Part shown: one piece after another, positions 988-16,702 of the stretch
Position numbering within the stretch: the first letter of the stretch is position 1
Layout: each line of letters opens with the position of its first letter
IMG/VR virus record: IMGVR_UViG_3300011189_000034
Coordinates: 1 to 27,821 of that record
DNA: 27,821 nucleotides
Source of the DNA: a virus
Strand: one strand, 5' to 3'
Notes under the pieces: model-generated
Databases searched by the model: none
Seen by the model: only the letters and a program-made list of their open reading frames with translations
What the model was told of the DNA's origin: nothing
Translations under genes and position numbers: made by a program

Positions 988-2667
988 ATGTTCACTCATA
1001 AATGTAAAAATTGTAAAACCGAATTCCAATCAAGGAAGCGTGTTAAAAAATATTGTAGCAACCTATGTTATCAAAGATATAGAAAAGACCCCGATTTTAT
1101 CATTGCGGCCAACGAGAAACGCAAATCAACTTGCTTGACAAGATACGGATGTGAACATGCGTCACAATCCGATGATGTAAAAGAACGCACCAAGGAAACG
1201 TGTGTGGAGAAGTACGGATGCCCAAGCCCAACCCAAAACGAAGATATACATAATAAACAAAAAGTCACAAATTTAAAAAGATACGGATATGAAAACCCGA
1301 TGAAGAATTTGGATATCCAAGAGAGGCAGAAAAATACATGTCTTTCCCATCATGGTGTGGAATTCGCTTTGCAGTCGAATGTTATATATGATAAATATAA
1401 GAATACGTGTCTGAAAATATACGGAACTACAGCTCCCTCCAAGTTAGAAAGTCAGAAGGAAAAAACAAAAGAAAGTTGTTTATTAAAATACGGAGTGGAT
1501 TCACCCAGTAAAAACAAAGAGATTATGGATAAAATTAAGTTGTCTAAACGACTGTCTATGTTCAACTCTCTATCAGACGGCAAACGATTAAACCCTAATA
1601 TAACACCATTGTTTAACGTCGATACATATATCTCCACAGACAGAGACAATTTATATGAATTTAAATGTAACGAATGTAGTCACATATTTAAAGACCACCT
1701 TCAAAACGGAAGGATGCCTAGATGTTTCAACTGTAACCCAAGGATAGAGACAGAAGTATCACAATACGAAAATGAAATCTATGAGTTTATTTGTCAAATA
1801 TACGATGATACAATAATCACAAGTGACCGATTGACAATTGGCCCTTTGGAGCTTGATATATTACTACCGAAATTGAATCTGGCTATAGAATTTAATGGAT
1901 TGTATTGGCATTCTGAGATAACAGGAAAGAAATATAAAAATTATCATTTGAACAAAACTAACTTATGTAAAAAAAACAACATTCGGTTGATTCATATATT
2001 TGAAGACGAATGGTTATATAAAAGAGATATTGTCAAATCAAAATTGAAGTCGATTATATTACAAGACACGTCGGCAGTATATGCTAGAAAATGTATAATA
2101 CGAGACGTAACAACTTCTGAGAAGAATGATTTCTTAAATACCCATCATATACAAGGGGCGGATAAGTCTAAAATAAAATTAGGTCTTTATTACAAATCTG
2201 AACTTAAGGCTATCATGACATTTGGTAGTTTAAGGGTGGCCCTTGGTAATACTCCGAAAGAAAACCAATACGAATTAATTCGATTTGCATCTAAGGATAG
2301 AGTTATCGGTGGTGCTAGTAAATTATTAAAAAATTTCATACAAACCCACCAACCGGAGAAGATAATAAGTTACGCCGACAAGAGATATAGTGAGGGTAAC
2401 TTATACAATACAATCGGGTTTAAAAAGATATCAGAATCACCGCCTAATTATTGGTATTTAAATCCCTCATGTAGTCACAGAGAATATAGATTCAAGTATA
2501 GAAAGAACGAACAACCAAAGTTATTGGCAAGTTTTAACGACGACTTGACAGAGTGGCAAAACATGCAGTTAAACGGTTACGATAGGATATGGGATTGTGG
2601 TTCTATTAAATTTGAAATGGTTATAAAAAAACCGTTGACTGCCCTTAACGATAGAACTACAAAATGA
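988..2667 (+). CDS. Free-standing homing endonuclease, YGV-repeat / PD-(D/E)xK (Vsr-like) family, copy 1
   Basis: This 559-residue protein opposes the structural genes. It starts with a Cys4 zinc motif (C6, C9, C23, C27). Six degenerate repeats follow, with the Tyr/His-Gly pair at residues 53, 76, 99, 122, 145 and 168: an exact 23-residue period, probably helical DNA-binding units. A second Cys4 motif lies at about 227-249. The nuclease core carries D290 (ELDI), E301 in AIEFNG, H308 and an FEDEW block at 338-342, a pattern like Vsr or DUF559-type PD-(D/E)xK nucleases. The C-terminal part (365-490) looks GNAT-like (VIGGASKLL, SYADKRYSEGNLY). The protein ends in a conserved block, RIWDCG. This is expected to be a mobile DNA-cutting gene. 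Paralogues lie at 2712-4490 and 5988-7691. The family assignment is good; the cut site is unknown. Confidence 0.8.
   Translation: MFTHKCKNCKTEFQSRKRVKKYCSNLCYQRYRKDPDFIIAANEKRKSTCLTRYGCEHASQSDDVKERTKETCVEKYGCPSPTQNEDIHNKQKVTNLKRYGYENPMKNLDIQERQKNTCLSHHGVEFALQSNVIYDKYKNTCLKIYGTTAPSKLESQKEKTKESCLLKYGVDSPSKNKEIMDKIKLSKRLSMFNSLSDGKRLNPNITPLFNVDTYISTDRDNLYEFKCNECSHIFKDHLQNGRMPRCFNCNPRIETEVSQYENEIYEFICQIYDDTIITSDRLTIGPLELDILLPKLNLAIEFNGLYWHSEITGKKYKNYHLNKTNLCKKNNIRLIHIFEDEWLYKRDIVKSKLKSIILQDTSAVYARKCIIRDVTTSEKNDFLNTHHIQGADKSKIKLGLYYKSELKAIMTFGSLRVALGNTPKENQYELIRFASKDRVIGGASKLLKNFIQTHQPEKIISYADKRYSEGNLYNTIGFKKISESPPNYWYLNPSCSHREYRFKYRKNEQPKLLASFNDDLTEWQNMQLNGYDRIWDCGSIKFEMVIKKPLTALNDRTTK
1129..1539 (+). 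repeat. Six 69-bp (23-codon) degenerate coding repeats
   Basis: Codons 48 to 184 of the endonuclease encode repeats whose (Y/H)G pair recurs every 23 residues without exception. Conservation is at the protein level, with diverged DNA: T-x-L-x-(R/K)-Y-G, then a small acidic/Asn/Pro-containing loop, then a charged helix. This is a protein repeat, not a CRISPR array. Confidence 0.8.
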
Positions 2668-2711: not shown

Positions 2712-4490
2712 ATGTATGTTAGTATGATACTAATCGAAAAAACCACATCTAAGTGTGAACTTAAATTCTCTGAAATCAAACGGTTTTCCAAACATCCTTT
2801 GTTTTTCACATGTGATTACTGTGATTGTGAATGCGAAACTACGTTCGTAAAGTATTATTCTAGTAAGAAGAATAATATAAACCAATCCGACTGCTGTAAG
2901 GAATGTGTTCCCCTGAAAAGGAAGGCTACATATATCACAAAGTATGGCGTAGATAACCCCACTAAGAAAAAAGAATTTATTGATAAGGCTAAGTCAACGA
3001 ATAAATTCCGTTACGGTTCTGAGTGTGCTTTACATAATAAAGAAGTAAAACAGAAATCTAAGGATACGTGTATTAAAAAATACGGCGTCGATAACCCGTT
3101 TAAATCCAATTTGGTGAAAGATAAGATTAAGGAAACTTGTAAAGAAAGATACGGGGTAGATTTCTACTCTCAGAGTGATTTATACAAGGAATCTGTGATC
3201 AATACGTGTATTGGAAAATATGGTGTATATCACCCCATGATGAATGATGATGTAAAGACTAAAATGTTGGATACTAATTCGAAACGACATGGTGGGGTAT
3301 TGATGGGGTCTGATACCATACGAAATAAAATCGAAAAGACCAATTTGATAAAATATGGAGATTCCGTGTATTCTAAGACGGATGATTTTAAAGAAAAAGC
3401 TCGTCAAACAAATTTTGAAAACTTATATAACAACCTGACAACAGGCCGATTAAAACAACTTTCAAAACCTTTGTTTAGTGTCAATGAATACGTAGGAGTA
3501 GACAGTTCATATAAATTTGAATGTGTGGATTGTTCGAATATATTTATTGATACGTTGGATGATGGTAAAATACCTCTATGTCCAATATGTTACCCGGTCA
3601 AGACTAACGGATCAAAGTTCGAATCAGGTGTGATTGAATGGGTATCAGATATAAGAGACGACATCACTGTTGTATCAAACGCCGTGGGTATATTAGGTGG
3701 GAGATTTGAGGTCGATATTTATATACCCGAATTAAAAATTGCCATAGAATGTAACGGCAATTATTACCATAGTGAACTCAGTGGTAATAAAAACAAACAC
3801 TACCATTTAAATAAAACCAATGAATGTGAAAAGAAAGGCATTCAGTTAATTCATATATTTGAAGATGAATGGTTATTTCAAAATGACATTGTGAAATCCC
3901 GACTGTTAAACATGATTAACCCTGGCAAAAAAATATTTGGAAGAAAATGTCATATCAAAGAGATAGACTTCAATACAAAATCAACTTTCCTAACCAACCA
4001 CCATTTACAAGGAGATGACGTATCACAAACCTATATAGGGTCATTTTATGAGGGAGAGTTAATCGCTGTAATGACATTTACTAGATGTAGGTTCACAAAA
4101 GATCATTCAATTGAGTTGTCCCGATATTGTACATCCGTTGCAACTATAGGTGTAGCCGGAAAACTACTGAAATACTACACTACAAAATACAACCCACACC
4201 AAATTATCAGTTACGCGGATCGTAGGTATAGCATGGGACAACTATATAAATCACTTGGTTTTGATATGATACATTATACAAATCCGAGTTACCATTACAT
4301 ATCACGTAAGAATTACCTTCAGAGGTTTAATCGACTAAACTACATGAAATCCAAATTGGAACATAAATTAAATCAATTTGACGGTTCATTGTCGGAGTGG
4401 CAAAACATGCAGTTAAATGGATATGATAGAATCTGGGATTGTGGTTCTATTAAGTTTGAAATGATAACACACAAAAAACCCACAATTTAG
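2712..4490 (+). CDS. Free-standing homing endonuclease, YGV-repeat / PD-(D/E)xK (Vsr-like) family, copy 2
   Basis: This 592-residue paralogue lies 44 bases downstream of copy 1 in the same orientation. It has a Cys-rich N-terminus (C34, C37, C61/62, C65). Seven repeats follow, with the Gly-containing pair at residues 78, 101, 124, 147, 170, 193 and 215: period 23, the last step 22. A Cys4 motif lies at about 271-293. The nuclease core has D335 (EVDI), E346 in AIECNG and FEDEW at 383-387. The GNAT-like C-terminal domain includes GVAGKLL and SYADRRYSMGQLY. The last 25 or so residues are almost identical to copy 1, including the DNA. The stop codon lies in the loop of a terminator hairpin. It is probably a mobile endonuclease; copy 1 and copy 2 may stem from duplication or successive insertion at one site. 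Confidence 0.8.
   Translation: MYVSMILIEKTTSKCELKFSEIKRFSKHPLFFTCDYCDCECETTFVKYYSSKKNNINQSDCCKECVPLKRKATYITKYGVDNPTKKKEFIDKAKSTNKFRYGSECALHNKEVKQKSKDTCIKKYGVDNPFKSNLVKDKIKETCKERYGVDFYSQSDLYKESVINTCIGKYGVYHPMMNDDVKTKMLDTNSKRHGGVLMGSDTIRNKIEKTNLIKYGDSVYSKTDDFKEKARQTNFENLYNNLTTGRLKQLSKPLFSVNEYVGVDSSYKFECVDCSNIFIDTLDDGKIPLCPICYPVKTNGSKFESGVIEWVSDIRDDITVVSNAVGILGGRFEVDIYIPELKIAIECNGNYYHSELSGNKNKHYHLNKTNECEKKGIQLIHIFEDEWLFQNDIVKSRLLNMINPGKKIFGRKCHIKEIDFNTKSTFLTNHHLQGDDVSQTYIGSFYEGELIAVMTFTRCRFTKDHSIELSRYCTSVATIGVAGKLLKYYTTKYNPHQIISYADRRYSMGQLYKSLGFDMIHYTNPSYHYISRKNYLQRFNRLNYMKSKLEHKLNQFDGSLSEWQNMQLNGYDRIWDCGSIKFEMITHKKPTI
2928..3431 (+). repeat. Seven 23-codon degenerate coding repeats
   Basis: Codons 73 to 240 encode YG-centred repeats spaced 23 residues apart, with one 22-residue step before the last unit. 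The consensus is T-x-x-x-K-(Y/H)-G-V-D-N-P followed by a Lys/Glu-rich helix. They match the repeats in the paralogue at 988-2667. Confidence 0.8.
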
Positions 4491-5987: not shown

Positions 5988-7691
5988 TTATTTAGAAATC
6001 CACTCAAATTTATAGTTTCCACAATCCCATATTTTAGAATAACCATTATTTTTTAAATTGTCTGAGTTAGAAACCATTGGATTATAAGTGTCCAACTTGG
6101 AATTTAGGTTGGATTTTCGGAAACTGAAACGATGTTGGCGGTAATATTTCTTTCGGCTAAAGTACCAATACCCCGGATCGGTATCCGCCAACTTAACCAT
6201 TCCTATATTTAAATACACCCCGCCGGTGAAGTATCGTTTGTCTGAATATGTTACGATACGTGTGGGATTGTAATTTCGAATGAAATGCGTGAATAGTTTA
6301 TTAGCACCACCCACAACTGTTTTAGTTACGCAGTATCTGTATATTTCATATGAATTTGACTTGGAAAACCTATCTCTGCCAAACGTCATAACTGATACTA
6401 GCTCATTGTCATATAATAGACCCAATTTAATCGATGAGTTATCGCTGCCTTGTAGATGATGGCATTTTAAAAAATCGATGCATTGACGAGATGGTATTTC
6501 AGATACAACACAATGTCTTCCATATACAGTATCGGATGATGGTGATATCTGGTTAGTCAATATCAATTTGACAATATCTTTTTTATATAACCATTCATCT
6601 TCAAATATATGAATTAACCGAATGCCTTTCTTTTCACATTCATCAGTTTTATTCAAATGGTAATCACGGAACTTCCCATTTTCCTCTGAATGCCAATATA
6701 ACCCATCACATTCTATCGCTAAGTTAAGTTCGGGTATATAAATATCAAGTTCCAAACCATCTAACATGGTTCGGTCATTCTCATGTATTGTTCCGGTATA
6801 TATAGTTTTAATATAACTGGATACTTCGAGTTCAAAGTTCGACCGGATTCTATAACAAGAAGGACACTTTGGTATGTCACCGTCTTCCAAACAATCGTGG
6901 AAGACCTCACCACAAGAATTACACTCAAATTTATATTCGTTATAATAACCAGAATCCAAATACTCAGTCAATGAAAATTGTGGGGTAGACAATCCGTTTA
7001 ATCGGTCAGATGAAAATAAACTCATATAAAATCGACGGCGAATGGTATCAATCCGTTTTTGTTTAATTGATTTAACTTTTTGTACGTTATCCACTCCATA
7101 TTTCTTTAATACAGATTGTTTTTTATAATATCCATGCAACGGACTTTCTACTCCAATGGAATTCAAACAACTAGACTTCTTTAACTCTTTTATACTTTCT
7201 AACTGAGATATGTTATCAACCCCGTATTTACAATTAACCGTCGTTCTAGATTTCTTCTGAATCGTCTTGTTCGATTGTACATATTCCACACCGTAACGAC
7301 TTAGATTCGTTTGTTTTGTTTTTTCTATAACAGACGCACTTAATTGAGCGCATTTGTTACTACACGACTGTCTGTAACCCTTAGTGTATGATACGAAATT
7401 AACTTGGTTGTCGCAATGCGAACATTTAGGAACAGTATCGGGAGAATATACAATGTGCCATAATCGATTGGCCATAGTCACATTCTCCCCCAAAAACGAA
7501 GTCGATTGTATAATTTTATTATACTGCTCTACGTAGTCGTTTTTCTTAAACCAGTTATATAACCCCCTTTTTGCTGGCAACTTACCGTTTGATATAACAG
7601 TTGATAATATGAAATCTTTCACGTTTTGAAAACTTTGGGTTTGATATTGTATATAACTATCAATTATAAACCCTAGACTCTCATATGTCAC
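5988..7691 (-). CDS. Free-standing homing endonuclease, YGV-repeat / PD-(D/E)xK (Vsr-like) family, copy 3
   Basis: This 567-residue paralogue of the genes at 988 and 2712 lies between the prohead protease and the scaffold-like gene, in the same direction as both. It has a longer N-terminal region with a helix rich in aromatic residues, then a Cys4 motif (C90, C93, C110, C114). It has four repeats (YG or IG at 133, 156, 179 and 198; the last step is shortened to 19). A second Cys4 motif lies at 257-279. The nuclease core has D316 (ELDI), E327 in AIECDG and FEDEW at 363-367. The GNAT-like C-terminal domain and the final IWDCG block are present. The given start is a GTG at 7691; no good in-frame ATG lies close to it, so the true start is uncertain. 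It lies immediately downstream of a strong terminator, so it needs its own promoter or read-through. Confidence 0.78.
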   Translation of the reverse strand: MTYESLGFIIDSYIQYQTQSFQNVKDFILSTVISNGKLPAKRGLYNWFKKNDYVEQYNKIIQSTSFLGENVTMANRLWHIVYSPDTVPKCSHCDNQVNFVSYTKGYRQSCSNKCAQLSASVIEKTKQTNLSRYGVEYVQSNKTIQKKSRTTVNCKYGVDNISQLESIKELKKSSCLNSIGVESPLHGYYKKQSVLKKYGVDNVQKVKSIKQKRIDTIRRRFYMSLFSSDRLNGLSTPQFSLTEYLDSGYYNEYKFECNSCGEVFHDCLEDGDIPKCPSCYRIRSNFELEVSSYIKTIYTGTIHENDRTMLDGLELDIYIPELNLAIECDGLYWHSEENGKFRDYHLNKTDECEKKGIRLIHIFEDEWLYKKDIVKLILTNQISPSSDTVYGRHCVVSEIPSRQCIDFLKCHHLQGSDNSSIKLGLLYDNELVSVMTFGRDRFSKSNSYEIYRYCVTKTVVGGANKLFTHFIRNYNPTRIVTYSDKRYFTGGVYLNIGMVKLADTDPGYWYFSRKKYYRQHRFSFRKSNLNSKLDTYNPMVSNSDNLKNNGYSKIWDCGNYKFEWISK

Positions 7692-10197: not shown

Positions 10198-12129
10198 TTA
10201 ATCCTCTAAAATATTACGTTCATCTAACAAAGAACGTTTATTCTTTGAATCTGTTTTGTATTTAGATTTCATCGATCTTAACTCTTCTGATATAGACAAT
10301 CCAATCTTTTTAGTGGCCGGAGTCATCCGTCTATTAAACCTCTCATCTTCATCTTGGTCATGCGGAGACGTTATATCTCGTGACCCATGACCTAAAGCAT
10401 CAGTATCCTTGCCATCATATCCTCTTCTTTTTGAATCGGACCTAACATTAGTTTCCAACCCATAGACATTGTTTAAATGGTTCTCAGAGTCCTCCTGTTC
10501 AGATTTATCACTGTCTCCACGATTGTCTTCGCCTGGCTTTGGGACTTCACCTTCAAACAAATCGCCTCCGAAGTCATCACCCCCGGTATCGCCGAAACCA
10601 CCGCCACCGCCTCCAAATCCACCGGAGAACTCATCGTTATCATCGTTTTCACTGTCGGTGTTCAGCTTCGTTACTTCCGCTGCTGGGTCAGTACCTTCAT
10701 TTTCGATAGTATCCAAACGATATTTAGCTTTATAGTCATCAACAAGTTCGGATTTAATTTTAGAGTAGTCTGCGGGGGATAAGTTGAATACATTCTCATA
10801 AATCCAATCAACGGAGAAGAACTTAGACTCAAACATATCTCTAGCAACACTCATCTTGTCACCCCAAAGAGCAATCTTTTCTTGTTCAAACAATGTGGAT
10901 GGGTTTGTTAAAGTAATTTCAAAGTTGACCATCGCAGCATCTGTAAACCCTTGGACATACAGGTGAAGAATAGCAATTTTTGTTAACTCAGACACGATAA
11001 TATGTTGAATGCGTTGGATCGTCTTTGCAAATCTAACGTCTTGTGCAGCTAATGAAGACTTTTCGCCAATACCTTCATCGTAACCAAGAAACGTCTTTGG
11101 AATTTTAAGAGCCGCCATCATCTTATTTTTGATGTATTCCAAATCGTCAATACCAGTCCACTCAAGACCGCTTAAGTTTTCAATCCGTGTTCCACTGTCA
11201 CCGCCACGGACAGGAAGATAAAAGTCTTCAATCATGTTCTGTAGATTGAATTTCAAGTTGTAATCACCTGTTTGTGGATCGATGTATGGAATCTTCTTCA
11301 TTTGAGATACCATTCTTTCCATGTGAGCGTCAACTTCTGAAGGCGGTATATTACCAATATCAACATAGAAAATTCTACGTTCTGGAGCTCTCATGATACG
11401 ATTTATTAACATCGCGTCCTCCATAAGTGATAATTGTTTCCATACTCTTCTTGCACCTTCTATCTGAGATTTTCCATATGGAAGAAAGTTAGAGTCGGAT
11501 AACAATCTAAAGTGACCCATTTCAAAATTTTCATATTCAGCACCACCAAATGAACCATCGTGTTGAAATTTCACATAATTCTTGTTCTCAGGGTCAATTC
11601 CTTCGATACGTGTAACTTCATATGCACTTAATGGTTCTACCATGAAGATGCCGTATTCAGGGGAAATATCCATCTTGAGGAAAAAATCCCCGTATTTACA
11701 CATGTTACGAGTCCAACTCCATAAGTTGAATTCGATGTTTAAAATTTCGTAAAATAGGTTATCAAGGATGGCTTTAATGTTATCATCCTCCGAACGGATA
11801 GTTAAAACCTCACCCATTTCATTCTTTGTAGTACACTCATCCGCATAGATATCGAGGGCACTCGACAGAATCGGGTCCATATCCATAACGTCATAATCTC
11901 GGAACAACTCTAATCTACTAGCTTGATATGCCATAGACATATCTCTATTATGAAGATTATAAGTCGAACTACGAAGTCGGTTGAACCGATCACGCATTGA
12001 ATTGCGGTCAGTTGCATACTGGATCTTGTTTGTGTCAACTACCTTCAATTTTTTCCCGCCGACATTGCGAATAACAACATCGGTTGAAAATAACTTCTTC
12101 AACCTTTTAAATACACTTATATCAGCCAT
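10198..12129 (-). CDS. Portal protein, T4 gp20-like, with extended acidic C-terminus
   Basis: This 643-residue protein forms the dodecameric DNA entry ring at the head vertex. Typical T4-type portal blocks are visible: YRDYDxMDxDP-like FRDYDVMDMDPILSSALD (76-93), DECTT, the LPYGKSQIEGARRVWKQL region (about 215-235) and APERRIFYVD. A conserved IENLSGLEWTGIDDLEYIK block is followed by an ALKIPKTFLGYDEG block and the long crown/stem helices. It is about 120 residues longer than T4 gp20. The excess is a Gly/Asp-rich tail from about residue 490, with a poly-Gly/Phe stretch near 500-525 and then polar charged sequence. The start overlaps the end of the GIY-YIG gene by 8 bases. A GGAG 7 bases before the ATG is a plausible ribosome site, lying inside the endonuclease coding sequence. 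Confidence 0.92.
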   Translation of the reverse strand: MADISVFKRLKKLFSTDVVIRNVGGKKLKVVDTNKIQYATDRNSMRDRFNRLRSSTYNLHNRDMSMAYQASRLELFRDYDVMDMDPILSSALDIYADECTTKNEMGEVLTIRSEDDNIKAILDNLFYEILNIEFNLWSWTRNMCKYGDFFLKMDISPEYGIFMVEPLSAYEVTRIEGIDPENKNYVKFQHDGSFGGAEYENFEMGHFRLLSDSNFLPYGKSQIEGARRVWKQLSLMEDAMLINRIMRAPERRIFYVDIGNIPPSEVDAHMERMVSQMKKIPYIDPQTGDYNLKFNLQNMIEDFYLPVRGGDSGTRIENLSGLEWTGIDDLEYIKNKMMAALKIPKTFLGYDEGIGEKSSLAAQDVRFAKTIQRIQHIIVSELTKIAILHLYVQGFTDAAMVNFEITLTNPSTLFEQEKIALWGDKMSVARDMFESKFFSVDWIYENVFNLSPADYSKIKSELVDDYKAKYRLDTIENEGTDPAAEVTKLNTDSENDDNDEFSGGFGGGGGGFGDTGGDDFGGDLFEGEVPKPGEDNRGDSDKSEQEDSENHLNNVYGLETNVRSDSKRRGYDGKDTDALGHGSRDITSPHDQDEDERFNRRMTPATKKIGLSISEELRSMKSKYKTDSKNKRSLLDERNILED

Positions 12130-12901
12130 TTACATACTCCCACCTTAAATTATATGCGTGTGGTCTGTGACCCGCGACACATCTAGAAACTACTTTATAT
12201 GAGTAGTCATTTACATCACTAGCTTCTCTAATTGAATTGTATACTGTAACTTCTCCGTTTTTATCTATACTTTTAACTTTAGACACCCGCGTCAAACCGT
12301 TCTTCAGACTCTTAAAATTTGGGGCGACTTGTATATTATTAGGAAAATCGTATTTATAACAAAATCCAAAACCCTTAACGTTTGTATATTTTTTATTTTT
12401 CTTACAACATTGAGTTATGTTAGACTGACATATACCGGAAAACAACTCCCTAGCAGCCTCACTAGCAGAACCCCACTCATGTATTAAATTTCCCGTTTTT
12501 ATATCATATTGACAAATGGGCTTTGTTACTTTCGGATTACCCATCATTGACTTTGAGATTCTTTTTTTTACGTGGTCGGGCATCGGCGATGATTCAAAGT
12601 TGGAATATACCTTATTATATCCAAAGTTCTCATTCAATGAATTGTTCAAGTCTATGTGGTAATCCTCCCTATCTTTGCAGTTATTCTTACCCGTAACATC
12701 GGATTCTACAACACAGAATTTAAAATTTTCTTTTCCGTGTTTGTTATACGCCCGTTGTAAATGATCGTTGTCGTGGACATTGGCCTTCAATTTCCACCGG
12801 TGAGTCTTCCACCTATTCTTATAACTTATAGAACTTCCAATGTAAACCTTTCGGTCAATCTCATTCTGTATTTTGTAAATCGTATATTTTCTATTTTCCA
12901 T
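12122..12901 (-). CDS. GIY-YIG homing endonuclease (free-standing)
   Basis: This 259-residue protein has an N-terminal GIY-YIG nuclease domain (1-100): TIY at 7-9, YIGSS at 20-24, conserved R30 and H34, and E79 in the REDYHID block. A NUMOD3-like KKRISKSMMGN (112-122) follows, then two NUMOD1/IENR-type DNA-binding modules (about 129-183 and 206-256). These enzymes cut intron- or gene-less alleles and spread themselves by recombination. It is inserted between the small gene at 13248 and the portal; its last codons overlap the portal start. No Shine-Dalgarno or TATTTATA box precedes its ATG. Confidence 0.9.
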   Translation of the reverse strand: MENRKYTIYKIQNEIDRKVYIGSSISYKNRWKTHRWKLKANVHDNDHLQRAYNKHGKENFKFCVVESDVTGKNNCKDREDYHIDLNNSLNENFGYNKVYSNFESSPMPDHVKKRISKSMMGNPKVTKPICQYDIKTGNLIHEWGSASEAARELFSGICQSNITQCCKKNKKYTNVKGFGFCYKYDFPNNIQVAPNFKSLKNGLTRVSKVKSIDKNGEVTVYNSIREASDVNDYSYKVVSRCVAGHRPHAYNLRWEYVNG

Positions 12902-13277: not shown

Positions 13278-14489
13278 CTACCGAATTAACCACCGAAGAT
13301 CCTGAACTTCTTTACTACTCACTTGTTGTTTATAAGGGTCATGTGTAGGAGATCCTGGTTGTCTAAAACCTGGCATGTTAGTGGATGAGTATATTCCATT
13401 CTCTTCAAACCCAGATTTCTTTATTCCCGCCAAAGCTTGTCTCTGTAGATCCATCCCCTTTTGACGTAACATTAATGCTGTATCTCGTACCCACAAACCA
13501 ATTCCCAACGCAATTGTTAAGTCATCATTATAACCGTCTGCTGCTTGGGCTTTACCGTTTTTCCAAATGAATGTCATTAGCTCATTTATGGTTCTCATCG
13601 ATTGTATGATAACACCCTTGTCCATGAAATATAAATCGATTTTAGATATCACCAGCGGTCTTGTTCGTGATGACATAGTAAACCCAGCAGTAGCTCTTTT
13701 TGATTTGGCGTTCCACTTGTTAGTATATTGATTTTCCATATCAACATATTTCAAATCATCATCCATATAAAATAGATTTTGATATCCTCTATCTAATATC
13801 TGTTGAATAACTGCCCAACCAATGTTAGAATTTTCAACAATTAATAAAGCGTTATTCCACTCTGTAGCCACTTGTACTAACAAATTACCAAAGTCCTTTG
13901 TTTCCAACTTACCTCTGTATTCAGCAACTTGTGTCATACTCTCAATTTCCAAAACGTGAAATGTAGAAAAGTCTTCTCCATCACCACGCGAAACGTCGGC
14001 ACTTACAACATATGTTTTTGAGTAGTCAGGAAACGCCCACGTCCAATAATTTGTGTCAAATCCTCTTTTTTCTACAGGTGCTTTAACGAAATTTTCTTCG
14101 TAATATTTCAAAGTCTCCAATGGAACAACTGAGTTACCAGACGAAACAAACGAACAATTATGAGATACTATTCCATCTACGTAAAAAATATTATTTGTTC
14201 CGACGTTGAGTATATCGTATAACACAATATCAGAGTCGAATTTTTCGATGTGTGTGATTGATATGACATCCCCCGATTCGGACCATAATTCATCTCCGAT
14301 TTTTAATACATCGGCATGTATAATTCCTTTACTACTCATAAACGGGTGAGTATCCGAACATTTTATAGTTTTGTCGGTGGATAAGGTTATCGCATAATAC
14401 GAATTCAGGGTCAACTTACGAATGCCCGAAAAAGGTTCATATCCAGACGGAGTATAGATTTCGTATCTAAAATTTTTCTTGAGTTTCAT
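13278..14489 (-). CDS. terL: Large terminase C-terminal part fused to split-intein C fragment (trans-splicing)
   Basis: This 403-residue ORF has two parts. Residues 1-111 are the C-terminal fragment of a split intein: IKCSDTHPF (42-50) is block B with the TxxH-type histidine, and YDILNV with GIVSHN (106-111) forms the C-terminal splice block. C112 is the +1 residue. Residues 112-403 are the terminase nuclease domain, beginning CSFVSSGNS. Acidic residues that fit an RNase H-like nuclease are D165 in SADVSRGD, E219 in LIVENSNIG and D322/D323 in GYNDDLT. The ORF starts 14 bases after the stop of the terminase N part and in a different frame, with no clear ribosome site. The spliced extein sequence ...QECD joined to CSFVSSG... 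matches a normal large terminase. Catalytic roles follow from T4 gp17 family knowledge. Confidence 0.93.
   Translation of the reverse strand: MKLKKNFRYEIYTPSGYEPFSGIRKLTLNSYYAITLSTDKTIKCSDTHPFMSSKGIIHADVLKIGDELWSESGDVISITHIEKFDSDIVLYDILNVGTNNIFYVDGIVSHNCSFVSSGNSVVPLETLKYYEENFVKAPVEKRGFDTNYWTWAFPDYSKTYVVSADVSRGDGEDFSTFHVLEIESMTQVAEYRGKLETKDFGNLLVQVATEWNNALLIVENSNIGWAVIQQILDRGYQNLFYMDDDLKYVDMENQYTNKWNAKSKRATAGFTMSSRTRPLVISKIDLYFMDKGVIIQSMRTINELMTFIWKNGKAQAADGYNDDLTIALGIGLWVRDTALMLRQKGMDLQRQALAGIKKSGFEENGIYSSTNMPGFRQPGSPTHDPYKQQVSSKEVQDLRWLIR
14157..14489 (-). other. Split intein, C fragment (111 residues)
   Basis: It covers codons 1-111 of the C-part ORF, from its ATG to the Asn before C112. 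Block B (SDTHPF) and block F/G (ending GIVSHN, +1 Cys) are intact. Length and sequence layout resemble the atypically split TerL inteins known from aquatic metagenomes, whose C fragment is about 104 residues. It contains no endonuclease domain. Confidence 0.92.
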
Positions 14490-14503
14490 TAGATTTTCAA
14501 TTT

Positions 14504-16702
14504 TTATAACACTTCGTATAGATTTTCCAAAGAAATATACATTTCTTCTTTGTTTACGATATCATACACTTTTACCTTAGAAACCCCCCACAGACAATCA
14601 CATTCTTGAGCAGCAGCTTGCTTGCCCAATAATACGTCCTGGTCATCTCTCCAAACTTGATCGTATTCAGGGTGTCCTGACCAGTGAAGTTTAATCGTAT
14701 TGAATGACTGAATTCCCTCTTCCGAATCCTTCCACATCCGATAGAACCAATTGCCCATACCATTTGGAGTCTGGTGACCGACAATGCCATTATAAACCAC
14801 AGAATGACACCACCTATCATCGAAATCATCTGGAAGGGAAAAGTCATATGTAAGCGACTTCGATTCTGTAATAGTTTTTATTTTTTCCCATACTATATTA
14901 TGTGAAATTATAGATTCCCAGTATTCAAAATCTTCGTCTGATAATAACTCACCATATAAATCAAACATCTGATTCACCAATTCCTGAGAAACATTCTCAG
15001 ATTTGCAGGGAGTCGATTTACTCACTATTGAATTTAAAAATATATTATGTCGTTTCTGAATCGAATGTGTAGTCTCACCTGAAAGCTCGAATAATGTCTT
15101 CACCAACTCAACGGAGTTTGGTATTATATTCAAATTACAATGGCGGGTTGATTGCTGTATACAGTCGTTGAAATATACACGTTTTCGATCCAAATTAAAT
15201 CCGATCAAATTATGAAATTTTATAGAATTCTTACCATATATTTCAATACGGTGAACGTCGTGATTAGTTTTTATATCACCCCCGTATGAATTCATCTGAT
15301 CCTTTGTGTAGTGATACCTACTCGTAAGAATCCCGAAATTGTTTAAAATCATCCGAGTCTTATCGATCAGAATTGAGGAACTTGATGTGTAATTAATCGA
15401 TTGAGAATCACATCCACCATCACCATCGAACATCCCCTTCAACACCCATCTAATTTTATCTCGGGAAAACGATAGTATTTTGGTTGTCAAATCTTTCCGA
15501 TTCGACTTATGGGATAAATCAAATCCTAAATATTCCAGAAATTCTAACAAATTTTTACATGACACGGAGTAATGCATGCCATCATCACTTCTCCACGGCA
15601 AACCAAGAGAATCGAATACCCACGAAATATCGTCTCCGCATGTAATTGTTAAACTTCCGCCGTTAGAATTAACATTTTTATATGTAGACCCCTCAGAAAT
15701 ATATAACCCGATTAGATAACACAATTCATTGGATAACGTATCGGGTTTAAACGGAATTCGTATCTTAGAAGAAACTGTAGGTTGAAAGTCTGAAATGTCA
15801 TCGTTATTACCCCATATATTTTGTCCATATTGGATACTAACATAGTCATCGGTAGTCAACTCATCCGATCTAAACCAACCAAATTCATTTAATTTTGATG
15901 AAAATGCCCACAACTTGTGATTGAAACTACACTCAAGATCCGTGGATTTAGTAGTTATCTTCTTCGTATCAACCAACCCATTATTATGAATTAGATTTCC
16001 AGTACGCAAACGATTTACCCCGAGTATATTATATGGAGTTACATTGTATCCACCTGACAATTCATAATTTACAAAATCTTTTACCTGGCGAATACCTTTA
16101 TCGGTAAACACGAACGTATCGTCGGTAACACATGATAATATAATAGCGTTACCACCACCGTGCATCATAGCGGATTGAACAGAAGTCCAAATATCACTGA
16201 TTTGGTCAATGAAAGCAGCTTCGTCTACTATAAGAAGTGACAAAGCTTCCGAACGACCGGCATCACCACTAGCAGAAACAGCTTTAATTTGAGACCCGTT
16301 TGAAAGTCTTAAACTCGTTCTGTTGTTTTCAATTTCACGTTCTTTCATCCATGATGGAAGGTTGTCATTAGCGAACCGAACTTTTGTTACCATGTTTTTA
16401 GCAACGTCTTGTTTAGTAGCAATAACAAGAACAGATTTGTCTTTATGAAACACCATCAACCACAAAGAATAAGCAGCGGTCAAAGTTGAAATGCCCATCT
16501 GTCGGCATTTTAGAATAATGTTTTTCGGGTTGTCTTTAAAATCTCGTATACACTCTTCTTGGAATGGGTATAACTTGAAAGGTATAGTACCTTTCTTAGG
16601 GTGCTGAATTTTTACATACTTCTTCATGAAGTATACTGGATCAGTAGCACACTTCAAATATTCTGCTTTAATAGCAGACTTTATCTCTGACGAACTAGCC
16701 AT
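14504..16702 (-). CDS. terL: Large terminase N-terminal part with an in-frame intein and a split-intein N fragment
   Basis: This 732-residue ORF contains, in order: the terminase ATPase extein (1-190), a full intein (191-644), a second extein (645-702) and a 30-residue split-intein N fragment (703-732). ATPase motifs are a Walker A-like KCRQMGIST (65-73, lacking the usual GK Lys), Walker B LLIVDEAAF (156-164) and motif III ILS joined across the intein to TPNGMG. The enzyme cuts and pumps DNA into the prohead through the portal. After both splicing events the protein would be about 540 residues (190+58+292), close to the family size (T4 gp17 is 610). It overlaps the upstream zinc-ribbon gene by 8 bases. 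A simple frameshift error is unlikely because both break points are exact intein junctions. Confidence 0.94.
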   Translation of the reverse strand: MASSSEIKSAIKAEYLKCATDPVYFMKKYVKIQHPKKGTIPFKLYPFQEECIRDFKDNPKNIILKCRQMGISTLTAAYSLWLMVFHKDKSVLVIATKQDVAKNMVTKVRFANDNLPSWMKEREIENNRTSLRLSNGSQIKAVSASGDAGRSEALSLLIVDEAAFIDQISDIWTSVQSAMMHGGGNAIILSCVTDDTFVFTDKGIRQVKDFVNYELSGGYNVTPYNILGVNRLRTGNLIHNNGLVDTKKITTKSTDLECSFNHKLWAFSSKLNEFGWFRSDELTTDDYVSIQYGQNIWGNNDDISDFQPTVSSKIRIPFKPDTLSNELCYLIGLYISEGSTYKNVNSNGGSLTITCGDDISWVFDSLGLPWRSDDGMHYSVSCKNLLEFLEYLGFDLSHKSNRKDLTTKILSFSRDKIRWVLKGMFDGDGGCDSQSINYTSSSSILIDKTRMILNNFGILTSRYHYTKDQMNSYGGDIKTNHDVHRIEIYGKNSIKFHNLIGFNLDRKRVYFNDCIQQSTRHCNLNIIPNSVELVKTLFELSGETTHSIQKRHNIFLNSIVSKSTPCKSENVSQELVNQMFDLYGELLSDEDFEYWESIISHNIVWEKIKTITESKSLTYDFSLPDDFDDRWCHSVVYNGIVGHQTPNGMGNWFYRMWKDSEEGIQSFNTIKLHWSGHPEYDQVWRDDQDVLLGKQAAAQECDCLWGVSKVKVYDIVNKEEMYISLENLYEVL
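14507..14596 (-). other. Split intein, N fragment (30 residues)
   Basis: It covers codons 703-732 of the N-part ORF, starting CLWGVSKVKVYD and ending LENLYEVL before the TAA. The first residue Cys and the short block-A pattern C-(V/L)-(Y/W)-G resemble the roughly 25-residue N fragment of the known AceL-TerL intein. The preceding extein residues are QECD. C701 is an alternative first residue but fits less well. Confidence 0.9.
14771..16132 (-). other. Full-length intein with LAGLIDADG endonuclease in terminase motif III
   Basis: This 454-residue intein runs from C191 to Q644, with T645 as the +1 residue. Block A is CVTDDTFVFTDKG, block B is CSFNHKLW (258-265) and the C-terminal blocks are LTYDFSLP and VVYNGIVGHQ. 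The two LAGLIDADG helices are LCYLIGLYISEGS (327-339) and RWVLKGMFDGDGG (418-430), with acidic residues E337 and D426/D428 at the active-site positions. The last residue is Gln instead of the usual Asn, a known minority form, and the nucleophile is Thr. Insertion is exactly between Ser and Thr-Pro of terminase motif III. The endonuclease looks intact. Confidence 0.92.

What the first reader, a model, noticed from the sequence alone, without database searches (positions are those of the whole stretch)
14157..14596. Large terminase broken by an atypically split intein
The sequence shows a 30-residue N fragment (CLWG... to LYEVL, stop) and, 14 bases on in another frame, a 111-residue C fragment (MKLKK... 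to GIVSHN) followed by C112. Extein flanks QECD and CSFVSSG join into a normal terminase. Such very short N fragments are known only for a small class (AceL-TerL and similar metagenomic TerL inteins). This appears to be another member, with the halves adjacent and no endonuclease gene between them, so the split may have arisen by simple fission. Virion packaging would depend on protein trans-splicing.
Basis: partly seen in the sequence, partly recalled or inferred. Interest (0 to 1): 0.82.

Follow-up and report, generated by a model that had tools for sequence, protein, structure and literature searches.

The report
Naturally split intein in phage terminase
A bacterial virus encodes its DNA-packaging motor in two pieces that must be stitched together by a self-splicing protein element cut into a 30- and a 111-residue part; this is a well-populated known kind of element, and its relatives show step by step how the endonuclease gene that once sat between the two parts decays and disappears.

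Summary
Window 14157-14596 (minus strand) holds a 30-aa intein N fragment ending in a stop, a 14-nt gap and, in another frame, a 111-aa C fragment. All catalytic positions are present. The modelled C fragment matches the Cat atypical split intein best (TM 0.83). The split is not an assembly artefact. A scan of IMG/VR gave 52 loci with both parts at this site: 35 split around a ~245-aa nuclease-like gene, 12 split with little between, 2 with gene remnants, 3 contiguous. The window's start codon sits in the same alignment column as in four other split loci, and a contiguous relative keeps a fossil Met there. Near-identical inteins occur with and without the gene, so its loss, rather than simple fission, best explains the window; the window itself carries no recognisable remnant. 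Verdict: new member of the AceL/GOS/Cat TerL kind. Side result: in relatives the nuclease gene is preceded by a copy of the intein's insertion site beside late-promoter-like sequence, as in the I-TevI autorepression operator.

The parts
14504..16702 (-). TerL N-terminal ORF (732 aa): ATPase part, intein 1, nuclease-domain start, intein-2 N fragment, stop
   Evidence: Terminase_6N 5.8e-9, PHROG terminase 1.1e-41
14771..16132 (-). Intein 1: contiguous, 454 aa, LAGLIDADG endonuclease; starts C, ends HQ, +1 T, in LS|TPNG
   Evidence: LAGLIDADG_3 1.2e-12; coordinates; site empty in L097
14507..14596 (-). Intein 2, N fragment, 30 aa (CLWGVSKVKVYDIVNKEEMYISLENLYEVL)
   Evidence: aligned with about 50 related N fragments
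14490..14506 (-). Stop codon TAA (14504-14506) and 14-nt gap; no HEG remnant or insertion-site copy detected
   Evidence: negative tests
14157..14489 (-). Intein 2, C fragment, 111 aa, own ATG; SxxH, D, HN present
   Evidence: model pLDDT 90.7; best fold match CatC
13281..14156 (-). TerL C-extein (292 aa, nuclease domain), starts C+1 SFVSSG
12122..12901 (-). Free-standing GIY-YIG homing endonuclease gene downstream of TerL; possible trans partner of the intein (weak)
   Evidence: among the loci fetched up to then only L097, also intein-bearing, has it

Best explanation
The phage TerL gene carries a class 1, naturally and atypically split intein at the QECD|C site. The TerL-N/IntN and IntC/TerL-C chains are made from adjacent reading frames (inferred: reinitiation or independent non-SD initiation at the ATG 14 nt after the stop). 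IntN (30 aa) threads into IntC (111 aa) to complete a HINT domain; Cys1, SxxH, block-F Asp, His-Asn and Cys+1 then ligate the exteins and excise the intein. Intein 1 must also splice out in cis, giving a 540-aa TerL. Shown: the parts, homology, catalytic residues, fold, and recurrence of the same split in independent contigs. Inferred: actual trans-splicing, and that the window descends from a split intein that once held a homing endonuclease gene between its halves and lost it.
For: IntC matches CatC 4e-18, gp41-1 and VidaL; window IntC model, top Foldseek hit 6dsl_B, TM 0.83; contiguous sister intein L177/L097 modelled at pLDDT 95 as HINT. S, H, D, H, N columns invariant in 27 aligned sequences. 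Exteins join into a TerL 73% identical to L097 over 538 aa, and most relatives have the site empty (70 of 71 parsed). Of 53 loci including the window, 35 split+HEG, 13 split without HEG, 2 remnant, 3 contiguous. Near-identical inteins with and without HEG: L187/L212 v L189/L238; L190 v L193/L197/L198. HEG scars in L178 and L190. Window ATG column shared with L195, L203, L215, L229; fossil Met in contiguous L192.
Against: No splicing assay. The window's junction shows no significant HEG remnant (p=0.24) and no insertion-site copy, and its nearest relative on the tree is contiguous (91/93, not starred, with a long-branch warning), so a fresh fission cannot be excluded. Block A has V at position 5 where most relatives have D or E (T, A, Q and N also occur).
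Confidence: 0.92

Rival explanations
1. The split is a sequencing or assembly error: the intein is really contiguous as in L097 and one base is wrong near the junction.
For: The C frame is open upstream of the ATG, so one indel before the stop would join the frames; the closest relative L097 is contiguous; no second contig with the exact junction was found (near-identical records may be hidden).
Against: The indel would have to fall before the TAA, in a stretch without homopolymers longer than two. The same split, with the C fragment starting at the same codon column, is found in independent contigs with and without HEG. Isolated phages show adjacent split halves too (EniLVp02).
Confidence: 0.05
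2. The window's split is a recent fission of a contiguous mini-intein (frameshift plus existing ATG), not the result of HEG loss.
For: Tree neighbour L177/L097 is contiguous; no HEG remnant in the 14-nt gap.
Against: Start codon column identical to other split ICs; the split state is common and HEG loss recurrent in this clade; contiguous L192 retains a Met in the start column, so refusion happens.
Confidence: 0.3
3. TerL works as two chains without splicing, as in the genes-in-pieces ribonucleotide reductase; the intein halves are relics.
For: The precedent is cited in PMC10448857.
Confidence: 0.03

Closest known systems
AceL-TerL, GOS-TerL and Cat (consensus) atypically split TerL inteins
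   Same: Terminase large subunit; short IntN (25, 37, 30 aa; here 30) and long IntC (104, 115, 104; here 111) (PMC11766414); Cys1/Cys+1 like AceL and Cat; CatC is the best sequence and fold match
   Different: About 38% identical to CatC in the fold alignment; a different TerL and intein clade (CLWG start, QECD|C site), whose between-halves gene is not GIY-YIG; second contiguous intein in the same TerL
Aeromonas phage PX29 gp17A/gp17B
   Same: gp17 in two ORFs annotated as 'putative N-intein' and 'GIY-YIG endonuclease and C-intein'
   Different: GIY-YIG fused in frame to the C part; none at the window's junction
Fractured genes with split inteins and a homing endonuclease between (Dassa et al. 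2009; known to me from memory and citations, paper not held)
   Same: Arrangement seen in 35 relatives of the window
   Different: Window has lost or never had the HEG at the junction
T4 I-TevI operator (PMC2988022)
   Same: Homing-site-like sequence beside a late promoter upstream of an endonuclease ORF, here seen in relatives only
   Different: Intein rather than group I intron; no binding data; absent from the window

Membership tests
Atypically split TerL intein (AceL/GOS/Cat kind) | Natural split close to the N terminus, IntN about 25-37 aa, IntC about 104-115 aa | tested here: met
   30 + 111 aa
Atypically split TerL intein (AceL/GOS/Cat kind) | Located in the terminase large subunit before a C.F motif | tested here: met
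   QECD|CSFVSSG here, EFE|CEFLGS in Cat-type loci, compared by motif
Atypically split TerL intein (AceL/GOS/Cat kind) | Sequence and fold homology of IntC to Cat | tested here: met
   E=4e-18; TM 0.83, rank 1
Class 1 intein | Cys1, block B (T/S)xxH, block F Asp, His-Asn end, Cys/Ser/Thr +1 | tested here: met
   C1, S45xxH48, D92, H110-N111, C+1; the IntC ones invariant in 27 aligned sequences
Split intein | Protein trans-splicing activity | not testable with these tools
   needs expression assay
Fractured gene with HEG between halves | Homing endonuclease gene between the split halves | tested here: not met
   14-nt gap in the window; met in 35 relatives
EDxHD (Vsr-like) homing endonucleases, for the relatives' between-halves gene | Catalytic domain homology | tested here: inconclusive
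   no Pfam, PHROG or credible PDB match; a conserved E..E..H pattern only

The most novel reading that the evidence does not exclude
The window is one stage of a cycle in phage terminases. A split intein holds an endonuclease gene between its halves; the gene is lost repeatedly; the bare split persists, as here; and the halves sometimes refuse, leaving a fossil start Met. While the gene is present, the sequence upstream of it carries a copy of the intein's own insertion site beside a late-promoter-like element, so that the endonuclease would repress itself late in infection as I-TevI does. This would be the same regulatory solution reached independently in split inteins, with two unrelated endonuclease types: the N-side site copy in the window's clade, the C-side copy in the GIY-YIG clade.
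Probability: 0.35. Interest if true: 0.62.

Novelty: new member of a known kind. Interest (0 to 1): 0.42.

Why it matters
Short-IntN split inteins are prized for attaching synthetic peptides to proteins, and tens of natural, diverse TerL pairs are listed here, some without any gene between them. The insertion-site copies next to the endonuclease start predict autorepression in inteins.

Tried and rejected
A slippery frameshift or transcriptional slippage joining the frames: no X XXY YYZ heptamer at the junction, and the A-run lies behind the stop (by eye). A HEG C-terminal remnant in the window gap ('IENLMKLKK'): profile score not significant, p=0.24, whereas L178 and L190 score clearly. A first version of that script failed through a wrong pattern. 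An insertion-site copy in the window gap or before the window's GIY-YIG gene: none. Exact-junction search of viral contigs: 0 hits. Close-relative search with the intein-C alone: none; alignments were needed. Classing the relatives' HEG by PDB, Pfam, PHROG or against the window's DUF7487 proteins: no credible match. Alignment A3 holds one stray single-residue row of mine, which invalidates the hhalign run; it was repeated without that row. Dassa et al. 2009 is not in the library.

Full report
WHAT IS THERE. The window is a 27,821-base IMG/VR virus record. It has a T4-type portal protein (1.7e-68) and a T4-type terminase. On the minus strand the terminase large subunit is encoded by two ORFs. 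The first (14504-16702) ends in QECD followed by CLWGVSKVKVYDIVNKEEMYISLENLYEVL and TAA. After 14 nt, in a different frame, the second (13278-14489) starts MKLKKNFRYEIYTPSG and reaches GIVSHN|CSFVSSG. With both inteins removed, the exteins give a 540-aa protein that aligns to the intein-free sequence of the nearest relative, L097, at 73% identity over 538 aa.

IS IT AN INTEIN. The joined N and C sequence hits the Cat consensus atypical split intein C fragment at 4e-18, gp41-1 at 1.2e-4 and VidaL at 1e-3. AlphaFold2 models of the window's C fragment (pLDDT 90.7) and of the contiguous sister intein (pLDDT 95.3) are HINT folds. The best PDB match of the window fragment is Cat (6dsl_B, TM 0.83, 38% identity), then gp41-1. 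In 27 aligned sequences (window included) the SxxH, Asp, His and Asn positions are invariant. Cys1 and Cys+1 are there too. Against L097, codon changes concentrate at third positions in both halves: 0.40/0.30/0.53 in IN and 0.35/0.28/0.65 in IC for positions 1/2/3. This fits continued purifying selection, though it cannot date it.

IS THE SPLIT REAL. The closest relative found (L097, 73% in TerL, same gene order) has a contiguous 144-aa intein at the same site, so an artefact had to be considered. A joining indel would have to lie before the TAA, in sequence without long homopolymers. More decisively, a scan with an alignment of window-type C fragments gave 52 loci with both parts at this site: 35 split around a ~245-aa ORF, 12 split with no such gene, 2 with truncated genes and 3 contiguous, L097 itself among these (as L177). 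The window's initiator Met falls in the same alignment column as the initiator of L195, L203, L215 and L229, and its IC has the same 111-residue length. Adjacent halves without an endonuclease also occur at this site in the isolated Vibrio phage EniLVp02 and at another TerL site in Shigella phage JK32.

WHERE THE SPLIT COMES FROM. Among close TerL relatives the site is mostly empty: 70 of the 71 loci that could be parsed; 9 more could not. Among occupied sites, near-identical inteins differ only by the gene between the halves: L187 and L212 overlap by 14 nt where L189 and L238 carry 771 nt; L190 has 86 nt where L188, L193, L197 and L198 have 770. Scars show deletion. L178 keeps the gene's leader and its last residues (RQLEIENLLKCKFIRI), L190 keeps its first and last residues, and L203 fuses the truncated gene start to the C fragment. 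On a tree of the inteins the gene's presence changes about 10 times, at least 6 on well-supported branches, while contiguous versus split needs 2 changes. The contiguous L192 and L200 keep a Met in the start-codon column, which reads as refusion of a split ancestor. Loss of the gene from a split intein is therefore the most economical origin of the window's state. It is not proven: the window's gap shows no remnant (p=0.24), and its nearest neighbour on the tree is contiguous, with a long-branch warning.

HOW IT WORKS (inferred beyond the anatomy). Two chains are translated from one operon. The C chain has no SD-like sequence upstream, like other genes of this window, and the gap allows reinitiation. 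IntN threads into IntC, the HINT domain forms, and standard class 1 chemistry joins QECD to CSFVSSG. Intein 1 splices in cis. Only then is a normal terminase available for packaging. The splicing itself was not tested.

COMPARISON. AceL-TerL (25+104), GOS-TerL (37+115) and Cat (30+104) are the known kind (PMC11766414). Aeromonas phage PX29 carries the annotation 'putative N-intein' and 'GIY-YIG endonuclease and C-intein' on its two gp17 pieces. A scan with CatC gave at least 80 IMG/VR loci; of the 36 whose N fragment was parsed, 32 are split around ~590 nt, 31 of these with a GIY-YIG motif, and 4 are adjacent. One locus of that clade, L057, is contiguous. The window is a new member, from a different TerL clade, of that kind; it is not a new kind.

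A SIDE RESULT ON THE RELATIVES. In the window's clade the leader between the IN stop and the nuclease gene contains a copy of the 15-nt intein insertion site CAAGAATGTGATTGT, matching at 12-15 of 15 positions in 11 of 16 non-redundant gene-bearing loci; random segments of the same loci reached at most 12. In some of them it follows directly on TATTTATA. In the Cat/GIY-YIG clade the leader instead contains a copy of the other half-site, the start of the C-extein (TGTGAGTTTTTTGGA, 10-13 of 15), directly followed in nearly all by TATAAATA. The loci within each clade are related, so these are two observations, not dozens. T4 I-TevI has a homing-site-like operator (15/20 identity) over its late promoter and represses itself (PMC2988022). 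The parallel suggests autorepression. The alternative is a footprint of endonuclease-gene invasion. The window, having no such gene, lacks the copy.

Noticed in passing
14771-16132 (-): Second intein in the same TerL: 454 aa, LAGLIDADG, inserted in LS|TPNG, ending in HQ (Gln instead of Asn) with Thr+1. Its site is empty in L097.
   Followed up: partly
L183, L188, L213, L219, L221, L227, L235 (leader after IN stop); L012, L015, L016, L058: Copies of the intein insertion site (N-side half in one clade, C-side half in the GIY-YIG clade) next to late-promoter-like TATTTATA/TATAAATA just upstream of the endonuclease gene between the intein halves.
   Followed up: partly
L183, L195, L221, L240 and others, between IN and IC: A conserved ~245-aa family with a CxC...CxxC cluster and a conserved C-terminal E..E..H pattern, probably a homing endonuclease; no Pfam, PHROG or PDB match; weaker relatives in Lak phages and LR756508.
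   Followed up: partly
12122-12901 (-), L097:6245-7012: Free-standing GIY-YIG gene two genes downstream of TerL, found only in the two intein-bearing relatives and in none of the other loci fetched by then, most of them empty-site; candidate for collaborative homing, but confounded by kinship.
   Followed up: partly
4944, 5975, 8369, 10177, 13252, 18423, 25539 (-): TATTTATA occurs 10 times in the window (3.2 expected); seven lie 4-30 nt before start codons, five of them within about 4 nt of the ATG: late promoters giving almost leaderless messages.
   Followed up: partly
988-2667 (+), 2712-4490 (+), 5988-7691 (-): Three related DUF7487 proteins (about 40% identical), two with weak restriction-endonuclease-like hits, probably free-standing homing endonucleases.
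   Followed up: partly
L192:4890-5318, L200: Contiguous inteins with a Met in the column of the split relatives' start codon, suggesting refusion of a split intein.
   Followed up: yes
L097:7014-10037: The portal gene of the closest relative carries an insertion with HNH-like sequence that looks like another intein.
   Followed up: no
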